DNA of 64,000 bases from Roridomyces roridus (taxonomy: Eukaryota > Basidiomycota > Agaricomycetes > Agaricales > Mycenaceae), in NCBI GenBank assembly GCA_029378245.1, contig JARKIF010000009.1, positions 1,302,001-1,366,000 of the forward strand. The letters are read 5' to 3'. Made by a program: the position numbers and the translations under genes. The notes beneath the pieces are model-generated. The model was not told the DNA's origin and ran no database searches. It was given only the letters and a program-made list of their open reading frames with translations. Below, in pieces: positions 31,889 to 41,949 of the stretch (position 1 is the first letter of the stretch; each line of letters begins with the position of its first letter).

Positions 31889-32679
31889 TTACAAAAGGCG
31901 TAGTTTACCGGTCACTCGATTCACAACCTCCACTGGTGCTGGCCCAATAGCGAGCACCGTCGTGGTTCCTCTGCGTATGATGAGTCGACGCCGGAAAGCA
32001 ATCATGAGCAACGCACTGGTCTTGGACACAACGGGCGCATAGATTCAGGTTTTTGGCGACTGACTGGAGATCGAGAAGCTGCTTCTCTGACGTCGCCTTG
32101 AGGGCAATCTTGGCTTGACTGCAACGCATAAATATGGAGAGAGGTAGGAGGCTGGGACGCGTACCCTGTCCTTTCCCAGTGCCTTACCAACTGCAAGCCT
32201 GTATGAGCATTGATCTCGAGGAAGAATGGGGAGGCCGAACATTGGTATTCCGTTGTACTAAAGCGCGATAGCAGGCCAAGGTCGCGTGTCTGGCACGAAT
32301 TGAGTGCGCGTAGAATTGTTGGAGCTGTACACGCACCCACATCTGTGCAAAATGAACGGACGATGAAAGAGCACGGGAAATGCTCACTGGCTTGAAATTT
32401 TGCCGGGCGTCATTTTGAGGTCGGTGCGGACAATGAGGACCTGATTCAGTTGCAGAACTTGCAACAGGATACAAGTAGCCCCCGTACGAGTTTACAAGGC
32501 TCAAAGGTTCCGGCGGTTACTGCGCTGAGGTCTCCGTCGTCGGTGGGCTCGTCTTCGGGCTCATCTTCTTGCACGATATTTTTTGTTGGCGTGGATCGAC
32601 CGAGATAGTATCCGAAGGAGGCAGAGACGATGGAGAGAGCGAGGGCAATACCTGGGGCACCGAGTCGGACGAGTGACAT
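31889..32679 (-). CDS. PTH2: Peptidyl-tRNA hydrolase 2, first paralog
   Basis: The start at 32679 gives MSLVRLGAPGIALALSIVSA, an N-terminal membrane anchor with SFGYYLGRS, then an acidic linker (EDEPEDEPTDDG). The catalytic domain shows CKLVLIVRTDLKMTPGKISS, QCGHATLACYRAL, QAKIALKATSEKQLLDLQSV, AKNLNLCARCVQD, then GTTTVLAIGPAPVEVVNRVT and GKLRLL* (stop 31889). Pth2 releases peptides from stalled tRNAs and in fungi is anchored to the mitochondrial outer membrane. QCGHA is rebuilt only with a 6-nt microexon (32337-32342). The usual DAGRTQI block between QD and GTTTVL is not found; either a splice form was missed or this copy has lost it. Compare the second copy at 41 kb. Confidence 0.85.
32337..32342 (-). 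other. 6-nt microexon in the first PTH2 copy
   Basis: The sense sequence is ATGTGG, flanked by introns 32343-32387 (GTGAGC...CACAG) and 32290-32336 (GTGCGT...GCCAG). Joined codons are CA|A TGT GG|A CAC, giving Q-C-G-H, the core of the family motif QC[SG]HA. Skipping it keeps frame but deletes the Cys and one neighbour. Confidence 0.85.
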
Positions 32680-40699: not shown

Positions 40700-41063
40700 T
40701 TTGGTGCGATAGAGAAGTATTCCACTGTATCGAGCCTTCTTAAAGAACCAGAAAGATACCGTTCGTCCGACAGAGTCCGAGAAAACCAGAGATTAAATTC
40801 GCGAAGTGGAAATTTTCAGCAGGTCAAAAAGATCCGGGAGAACCTCATGCAGAATTTATGGTTTGGTTTTGAATGGCAGAGGGTCGCCGCCGGTCGCGTA
40901 GACATGAATCAGTCCCGTGCAGGAGAGAGATGCGGGCGGATCCAAGGTTTTATTAAGAGAAGGACTTGAAGCGATGGGTATTCTTTACGGAGTGGGCAAG
41001 GGCGTCGGCCATCCACACCGGCCCGGGATGCCGGTCGCTTTCCATTTCGGACATCAATCGGTC
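40700..41063. promoter_or_regulatory. Divergent intergenic region, MFS carrier and second PTH2
   Basis: About 360 bp between two divergent starts, one of the longest gene-free stretches among the paired genes. No clear TATA box or conserved motif was recognised. An open frame on the plus strand here ends near 41108 and may include the true first exon of the PTH2 copy. Confidence 0.4.
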
Positions 41064-41949
41064 ATGGAACCTCCTTCGACTCTGGGTATGCTCACCTCTT
41101 CTCTGTAGGCCGCGGCCTTGACCACTATCCCAGTCGCCGCTGTTGTCGTAATTACTTCCGTTTCGCTGGGTTACTTGGCCGCCCGAGCTAGCAGCGACAC
41201 GAAAATCCAAACCGTTGAGCCGGCCCAGCCTGAACCAGATTCGGATTCTGAAAGCGACGACGATGTGGACGTGTCTGCCTTGAAACCAGCGGACGATTGC
41301 AAGCTAGTGAGTCTCTTTGCCGACGCAGCGGAACGCATGCGATAAAGCGCAGGTGCTGGTCGTCCGGACAGATCTTGGGATGTCAACTGGCAAAATAGCA
41401 GCTCAGTGAGTGCGCGGGTGTATTGTGATGGGCTGGTCTAAGCCTTGCAGATGCTCGTAAGGTCTCGCAGAGCTCTCTGATTGCGCTCGTCTAATATTGA
41501 GCAGCCATGCTACTTTGGCATGCTTCAAAACCCTGAAAGGCAAGAATCCCGCGGTACAGTTCCTGCTATCGCGAAGCAGAGCCGCCGCCTAGTATGCTCC
41601 ACAGCTGCTCCAACGGTGGGCACGCACAGGCTATCCGACGACTACCCTCCGTTTCCCTGATAACGGCGACGCCCTGGAGACATTACAACTGCTCCAAGCG
41701 CAAGCGCAAAGCCTGAATCTCTGCGCACGCTCCATCAAAGACGCGTTCGTGTACTCGTCTGCTTATAACCTCATCTCACTTGACGGTCGACAACAGCGGA
41801 CGAACACAGATCGAAGCAGGCTCGACAACTGTTTTGGGCGTTGCAGGTTTGTTGCAAGGTTTTATTATTTGAATATTAAACGAGGAAAAACTGTAGGGCC
41901 GAGCCTGCTTGTCGAGCAGTTAACGGAGGGGCTGGTGGGGCTGGAATAG
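41064..41949 (+). CDS. Peptidyl-tRNA hydrolase 2, second paralog
   Basis: A second, diverged Pth2. An N-terminal anchor (TTIPVAAVVVITSVSLGYLA), an acidic linker (PEPDSDSESDDDVDVS), then VLVVRTDLGMSTGKIAA, QCSHATLACFKTLKG, LLQRWARTGYPTTTLR, LQLLQAQAQSLNLCARSIKD, AGRTQIEAGSTTVLGVAG and a tail PSLLVEQLTEGLVGLE* (stop 41949). QCSHA needs a 6-nt microexon (41451-41456). The tail needs a last intron (about 41851-41898) that begins GTTTGT and ends CTGTAG. The GRTQI block is kept here but missing from the first copy. The first exon is uncertain: ATG 41064 is one base out of frame across the intron ending CTGTAG at about 41109, so either another start is used or there is an indel. Confidence 0.78.
41451..41456 (+). 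other. 6-nt microexon in the second PTH2 copy
   Basis: The sequence is ATGCTC, between introns 41406-41450 (GTGAGT...TTGCAG) and 41457-41504 (GTAAGG...GAGCAG, branch CTAAT). Joined codons CA|A TGC TC|C CAT give Q-C-S-H. Position, phase and size equal those of the microexon in the other copy. Confidence 0.88.

What the first reader, a model, noticed from the sequence alone, without database searches (positions are those of the whole stretch)
41406..41504. Six-nucleotide microexon in the second Pth2 copy
Exon ATGCTC (41451-41456) sits between 45- and 48-nt introns with good donors, acceptors and a CTAAT branch. Only with it does the catalytic-domain motif Q-C-S-H-A form (codons CA|A TGC TC|C). 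Six-nt exons are at the limit of what spliceosomes can define, and gene predictors would miss them.
Basis: partly seen in the sequence, partly recalled or inferred. Interest (0 to 1): 0.75.

Follow-up and report, generated by a model that had tools for sequence, protein, structure and literature searches.

The report
Six-base exon in a mushroom gene
A mushroom gene for a translation-rescue enzyme contains what looks like a real exon only six bases long that supplies two residues of the enzyme's active-site region; a sister gene nearby has the same tiny exon, which the public annotation overlooked.

Summary
ATGCTC (41451-41456) lies between 45- and 48-nt GT-AG introns and restores A-A-Q-C-S-H-A in a Pth2 gene (41028-41949, +).
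(1) The first Pth2 copy (31889-32679, -) has the same 6-nt exon, ATGTGG (32342-32337), at the same codon position and phase.
(2) A parse giving Q-C-S/G-H arises in only 146 (copy 2) and 29 (copy 1) of 200,000 resampled intron regions.
(3) Deposited Roridomyces roridus protein P0001 equals spliced copy 2 letter for letter, exon included. Deposited P0121 equals spliced copy 1 minus exactly those two residues: there the annotation skipped the microexon.
In searches 1 and 2, 15 of 226 listed homologues (P0121 among them) lack exactly these residues. All 15 are annotated models; 0 of 45 environmental proteins do. Both paralogue clades contain such models.
Best reading: an old, constitutively included, intron-defined microexon, often misannotated. 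Six nt is not a spliceosomal limit, and 6-bp exons are already reported in a basidiomycete. No RNA, and no other fungal genome, was examined. A new member of a known kind.

The parts
41451..41456 (+). 6-nt microexon ATGCTC of Pth2 copy 2; completes Q, encodes C and two bases of the S codon of AAQCSHA
   Evidence: included in deposited protein P0001
41406..41450 (+). 45-nt intron before the microexon (GTGAGT...TTGCAG)
41457..41504 (+). 48-nt intron after the microexon (GTAAGG...CTAATATTGAGCAG)
41028..41949 (+). Pth2 copy 2, eight coding exons: 41028-41085, 41134-41306, 41353-41405, 41451-41456, 41505-41553, 41605-41744, 41797-41846, 41897-41949; introns 45-52 nt
   Evidence: spliced translation equals P0001, 193 aa, letter for letter; PF01981 110.1 bits (on an earlier model with a different N-terminus)
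32337..32342 (-). 6-nt microexon ATGTGG of Pth2 copy 1; same codon position and phase, gives SSQCGHA
   Evidence: missing from deposited protein P0121
32343..32387 (-). 45-nt intron before the copy-1 microexon (GTGAGC...GCACAG)
32290..32336 (-). 47-nt intron after the copy-1 microexon (GTGCGT...GTGCCAG)
31889..32679 (-). Pth2 copy 1, seven coding exons: 32679-32488, 32440-32388, 32342-32337, 32289-32241, 32190-32165, 32118-32017, 31970-31889; introns 45-50 nt
   Evidence: PF01981 127.9 bits with, 115.0 without the microexon; spliced without the microexon it equals P0121, 167 aa

Best explanation
ATGCTC is a genuine internal coding exon of six nucleotides, normally included in the mRNA. It lies between two ordinary short GT-AG introns. 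Each intron is small enough (45 and 48 nt) for its two ends to be paired across the intron (intron definition), so the exon need not be recognised as a unit. Removal of both introns, one after the other, joins CA|ATGCTC|CC and yields the conserved stretch A-A-Q-C-S-H-A of a Pth2-type peptidyl-tRNA hydrolase. The microexon is older than the duplication that produced the two Pth2 copies and is probably shared by much of the Agaricomycetes, where many deposited models skip it by error. Shown here: the sequence, the parse, the same exon in the paralogue, the exact match to the deposited protein, and the pattern of two-residue gaps in homologues. Inferred: inclusion in RNA, intron definition, constitutive use, the exon in other species, its age.
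For: (a) Same 6-nt exon, same phase and neighbouring codons in both paralogues, while the flanking introns are not significantly alike (first intron 49% against 48% for shuffles; second 58% against 49%, z 1.8). (b) A Q-C-S/G-H parse by chance: 146 and 29 of 200,000 draws. (c) The other introns of the two genes are 46-52 nt; without the microexon each gene would have one intron of 99 or 98 nt. (d) PTH2 scores rise from 94.0 to 110.1 and from 115.0 to 127.9 bits; human Bit1 1q7s reads GKVAAQCSHA. (e) Deposited P0001 equals the copy-2 splice product with the exon. (f) Of 226 listed homologues 15, P0121 included, lack exactly these two residues; in the other hydrolase-domain columns there is one two-residue gap (P0219). 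(g) Five models read AAHHA, which is what joining CA to an exon that begins with C gives, as in copy 2; 0 of 181 proteins matching A[AS][QH]C[SGA]H have H in place of Q. (h) Skip forms: 0 of 45 environmental (jgi/lgn-only) against 15 of 181 annotated proteins in searches (Fisher p 0.03); 0 of 47 against 28 of 205 over all three searches (p 0.002; the third search was built to favour skip forms). (i) Skip forms fall in both paralogue clades, 9 and 20.
Against: No RNA read was seen; inclusion rests on coding sense, conservation and the deposited model, whose own support is unknown. No fungal DNA other than this genome could be read, so the microexon in other species is inferred from protein gaps. 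The flanking exons of the two copies are themselves only modestly alike as DNA (z 2.7 and 1.7), so the contrast with the introns is weak. Point (g) has exceptions outside the pattern: P0172 and P0213 read STHC, with H in place of Q and no skip. Two-residue gaps also occur before the domain, one shared by 21 proteins. Another place, after D-A, has gaps of 5 or 7 residues in 13 rows, copy 1 and P0121 among them, and gaps of 2, 3 or 4 in three more, so not every gap near a junction is a missed exon. The environmental proteins are taken for spliced transcripts only because long ORFs sit on short contigs; their DNA was not read. Tree support for the two clades is moderate (SH-aLRT 91 and 85; 115 columns, 90 rows, short search; the outgroup rows did not hold together). 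Some annotated skip forms may be real isoforms.
Confidence: 0.92

Rival explanations
1. The microexon is a regulated cassette. Skipping it keeps the frame and makes a Pth2 lacking two residues just before the conserved histidine, so the choice acts as an on/off switch for the enzyme.
For: Skipping is in frame in both copies; 28 of 205 annotated homologues have the skip form (enriched by the third search). A 20-nt glucose-dependent microexon switch is described in Trichoderma (PMC11121469, passages).
Against: 0 of 47 environmental proteins carry the skip form. In one genome the annotation includes it in one copy and skips it in the other, which fits predictor error. No regulatory element was sought.
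Confidence: 0.06
2. There is one 99-nt intron (98 nt in copy 1); the 6-nt exon is a chance parse and the protein really lacks the two residues.
For: The deposited copy-1 protein P0121 reads that way, and any AG-N6-GT arises in 12% (copy 2) and 4% (copy 1) of resampled regions.
Against: A parse restoring Q-C-S/G-H is rare (146 and 29 of 200,000) yet present in both paralogues; both PTH2 scores fall without it; the deposited copy-2 protein includes it; the other introns are 46-52 nt.
Confidence: 0.02
3. Copy 1, or less likely copy 2, is a decaying gene in which the microexon is a relic and correct splicing no longer matters.
For: Copy 1 lacks the seven residues GRTQIEA that copy 2 and most listed homologues have.
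Against: Both genes give complete frames over seven or eight exons with GT-AG introns, both score well above the Pfam cut-off, and copy 2 keeps the AAQCSHA and DAGRTQI stretches that align with 1q7s.
Confidence: 0.03

Closest known systems
Conserved, misannotated plant microexons (PMC8831610; start of abstract and passages)
   Same: Tiny coding exons conserved across species and often missing from reference annotation, down to 1 nt in APC11 and VPS55
   Different: Plants, shown by RNA-seq and RT-PCR; here a fungal gene and no RNA evidence
Microexons of 2-10 codons in Phanerochaete chrysosporium P450 genes (PMC1184071; passages)
   Same: Basidiomycete, frequent introns of 45-55 bp, shortest exon 6 bp
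   Different: P450 family; no paralogue or cross-species test of the 6-bp exon in the passages seen
Trichoderma virens Xlr2 20-nt microexon (PMC11121469; passages)
   Same: Fungal microexon missed by the JGI gene model and looked for in related species
   Different: 20 nt, regulated by glucose, in a transcription factor; here 6 nt and probably constitutive
Human MPC1 4-nt exon (PMC9929638; abstract and passages)
   Same: Very short exon, constitutively included
   Different: Recognised by exon definition between long introns; here short introns, probably intron definition
Human PTRH2/Bit1 (PDB 1q7s; PMC7661711, passages)
   Same: Same AAQCSHA stretch. By my own count along 1q7s, with the recalled start of that chain near residue 63, the Q split by the first junction matches human Q85; Q85P is a reported disease variant said to kink a helix
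   Different: No microexon is described in the passages seen; the match of residue numbers is my own count

Membership tests
Microexon (internal exon of about 30 nt or less) | Short internal exon between two introns with GT-AG ends | tested here: met
   6 nt, GTGAGT...CAG and GTAAGG...CAG
Microexon (internal exon of about 30 nt or less) | Contributes coding sense that is conserved | tested here: met
   QCSHA/QCGHA restored in both copies; PTH2 scores rise
Microexon (internal exon of about 30 nt or less) | Present in mature mRNA | not testable with these tools
   No reads available; deposited protein P0001 includes it, but how that model was supported is unknown
Pth2 peptidyl-tRNA hydrolase (PF01981) | Profile match above cut-off over the domain | tested here: met
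   copy 2 110.1 bits over 1-112/115, copy 1 127.9 bits over 1-115/115, cut-off 23
Pth2 peptidyl-tRNA hydrolase (PF01981) | GK..AQ[CxxH] and DAG[RH/K]TQ stretches (read off the alignments to solved Pth2 chains, not from a published motif) | tested here: met
   Copy 2 has both. Copy 1 has the first but lacks GRTQIEA, so for copy 1 the second is not met
Pth2 peptidyl-tRNA hydrolase (PF01981) | Hydrolase activity | not tested
   Needs an assay
Regulated (switch-like) microexon | Inclusion changes with condition | not testable with these tools
   No RNA data; 0 of 47 environmental proteins show the skip form

The most novel reading that the evidence does not exclude
A single 6-nt exon in the active-site region of Pth2 has been kept since before the Pth2 duplication in mushroom-forming fungi, in both daughter genes and across several orders, because in-frame skipping offers a regulated way to turn the enzyme off.
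Probability: 0.06. Interest if true: 0.7.

Novelty: new member of a known kind. Interest (0 to 1): 0.42.

Why it matters
It is a clean natural case of a very small, probably constitutive coding exon in a fungus with short introns, kept in two old paralogues. It suggests that up to 29 of the 205 annotated Pth2 proteins listed here lack two residues next to the active-site histidine through annotation error. The AAQHA/AAHHA signature could be used to find such errors in other fungal families, and the gene would suit tests of how intron definition handles an acceptor and a donor six nt apart.

Tried and rejected
Family PF01981 searched by frame in the own genome matched only copy 1. Protein and DNA searches of the own genome with copy 2 listed only copy 2 itself and no third gene; such searches are weak for short exons, and one search did not list copy 1 either. 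A first gene model with start 41064 and a 23-nt intron was out of frame and was dropped; the model with exon 1 at 41028-41085 fits P0001. A first chance simulation used the wrong frame and was redone; only one search is used. Viral contigs gave two distant Pth2 relatives, of no use for gene structure. A twin intron that removes all 99 nt was considered and set aside by reasoning only, since the six coding bases that complete the motif would be lost. No structure prediction was run.

Literature: no held paper contains both 'peptidyl-tRNA hydrolase' and 'microexon' (0 papers). 'Microexon' with 'fungi' (25 of 61 papers listed), 'microexons' with 'basidiomycete' (5 of 5 listed) and a looser term set (15 of 2,175 listed) showed no Pth2 case in titles or starts of abstracts. 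Romfo et al. 2000 (intron definition in S. pombe) and Bumpus et al. 2008 (Phanerochaete cytochrome c) were seen only as reference-list entries. A search for this species with 'genome' found one paper, a review of luminous fungi (listing only).

Full report
What is there. The window lies in a 90.8-Mb genome of 501 contigs. Both Pth2 genes match proteins deposited for Roridomyces roridus, so the window is that species or nearly so. Copy 2 runs on the + strand in eight coding exons, 41028-41949. The finding's coordinates are exact: intron 41406-41450, exon ATGCTC 41451-41456, intron 41457-41504. The spliced product equals deposited protein P0001 (193 aa) letter for letter. Its hydrolase domain scores 110.1 bits against PF01981 with the microexon and 94.0 without (that run used an earlier N-terminus, outside the domain).

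The sister gene. Copy 1 (31889-32679, minus strand) has the same arrangement: exon ...AGCCA, a 45-nt intron, ATGTGG (32342-32337), a 47-nt intron, exon ACACGCG..., giving S-S-Q-C-G-H-A. Its score is 127.9 bits with and 115.0 without the microexon. Position, phase and length of the exon are the same in both copies. The first introns are no more alike than shuffled sequence (49% against 48%), the second not significantly more (58% against 49%, z 1.8); the neighbouring exons are only modestly alike as DNA (z 2.7 and 1.7), so this contrast is weak. The deposited copy-1 protein P0121 (167 aa) equals my copy-1 splice product minus exactly C and G: that model joins the two flanking exons through a 98-nt intron.

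Chance. I kept the outer splice sites and resampled the interior of the region by a first-order Markov chain, 200,000 times per copy. An AG-N6-GT occurred in 12% (copy 2) and 4% (copy 1) of draws, so the bare dinucleotides are weak evidence. A parse giving Q-C-S/G-H occurred in 146 and 29 draws. In the real sequence copy 2 has four parses and copy 1 four, two of the latter in frame (ATGTGG, and ATGTGGGTGCGT giving SSQCGCVHA); only the 6-nt ones give the family motif. The other introns of both genes are 46-52 nt; treating the region as one intron would give 99 and 98 nt, about twice the norm of these genes.

Other species. Three protein searches listed 252 different homologues, each listing being the best 120 of more hits (1335, 429 and 5347). 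In an alignment of the 226 from the first two searches with the two window copies, 15 of 226 lack exactly the two residues encoded by the microexon, P0121 among them; in the rest of the hydrolase-domain columns there is one two-residue gap, in P0219. Before the domain, two-residue gaps are commoner, one being shared by 21 proteins. After D-A the alignment has gaps of 5 or 7 residues in 13 rows, copy 1 and P0121 among them, and shorter ones in three more. Three more models (P0009, P0148, P0181) are misread at the microexon in other ways and are not in the 15. The third search used a profile made of skip forms and so favours them: 14 of its 26 new proteins are skip forms. Over all 252, a pattern count gives 28 skip forms among 205 annotated proteins and 0 among 47 environmental ones; P0206, a 29th by alignment, was classed 'other' by the pattern. 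In the less biased first two searches the counts are 15 of 181 and 0 of 45 (p 0.03). The environmental (jgi/lgn-only) proteins are long ORFs on short contigs, 46 of 47 on 0.9-3.8 kb and one on 9.2 kb. I take them to be mostly spliced transcripts; their DNA was not read.

A detail argues for splicing rather than true deletion. Five skip models read AAHHA (P0211, P0227, P0229, P0232, P0246); the others read Q before H or D, and P0206 reads H before Q. Joining a CA remnant to an exon that begins with C or T gives H, and to one that begins with A or G gives Q; copy 2 and copy 1 of this genome show both cases (AAHHA and SSQHA). Of 181 proteins that match A[AS][QH]C[SGA]H none has H at that place. 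Exceptions exist outside that pattern: P0172 and P0213 (Marasmius) read STHC with no skip.

Age. In a tree of 90 hand-picked rows the deposited copies P0001 and P0121 fall in separate clades (SH-aLRT 91 and 85), with 9 skip forms in the copy-2 clade and 20 in the copy-1 clade. If these are missed microexons, the exon is older than the duplication. Species with skip forms include Suillus, Pisolithus, Exidia, Coniferiporia, Vararia, Auriscalpium and many Agaricales (names; their orders are recalled). Support is moderate, the search was a short one and the outgroup rows did not hold together; for species other than this one the exon is inferred from proteins, not read in DNA.

How it works. Two short introns flank the exon. 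Pairing of splice sites across each intron (intron definition, reported for fission yeast in a title seen only in a reference list) removes the need to recognise a six-base exon as a unit; the two introns can be removed one after the other. Keeping either intron stops translation at once (...AAQ or ...AAQCS), while skipping keeps the frame but removes two residues just before the conserved histidine. Human Bit1 has the same AAQCSHA stretch. By my own count the glutamine split by the first junction corresponds to human Q85, whose change to proline is a disease variant said to kink a helix (PMC7661711, passages). Loss of two residues here would probably disable the enzyme; that is inference.

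What is known. Six-bp exons in a basidiomycete (PMC1184071), a fungal microexon missed by annotation (PMC11121469), conserved misannotated plant microexons down to 1 nt (PMC8831610) and a constitutive 4-nt human exon (PMC9929638) are all in print; of each I saw passages only. What appears to be new is this case in Pth2, its presence in two old paralogues and the misannotation pattern; no held paper has both 'peptidyl-tRNA hydrolase' and 'microexon'.

Verdict. The feature is real with high confidence. The finding is a good, modest addition to a known kind.

Noticed in passing
window 31971-32016 (-): Copy 1 lacks the seven residues GRTQIEA that follow D-A in copy 2; the deposited P0121 lacks them too, and six Armillaria/Desarmillaria proteins share the same seven-residue gap in the alignment. 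Copy 1 may be a less active or repurposed Pth2.
   Followed up: partly
homologues P0137, P0142, P0143, P0144, P0147, P0217, P0219 (Armillaria and Desarmillaria): These copy-1-type proteins have D in place of the conserved H after the QCG (or skip) motif, which suggests loss of catalysis in that paralogue.
   Followed up: no
homologues P0148 and P0181 (Mycena sanguinolenta), P0009 (Mycena polygramma), P0251 (Laetiporus sulphureus): These models look misread at the microexon site in other ways: six residues lost, extra residues, QWH, QYRH.
   Followed up: no
loci L010 and L011 (viral contigs): Two IMG/VR contigs encode distant Pth2 relatives, 34% and 30% identical to the query in the best segment.
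   Followed up: no
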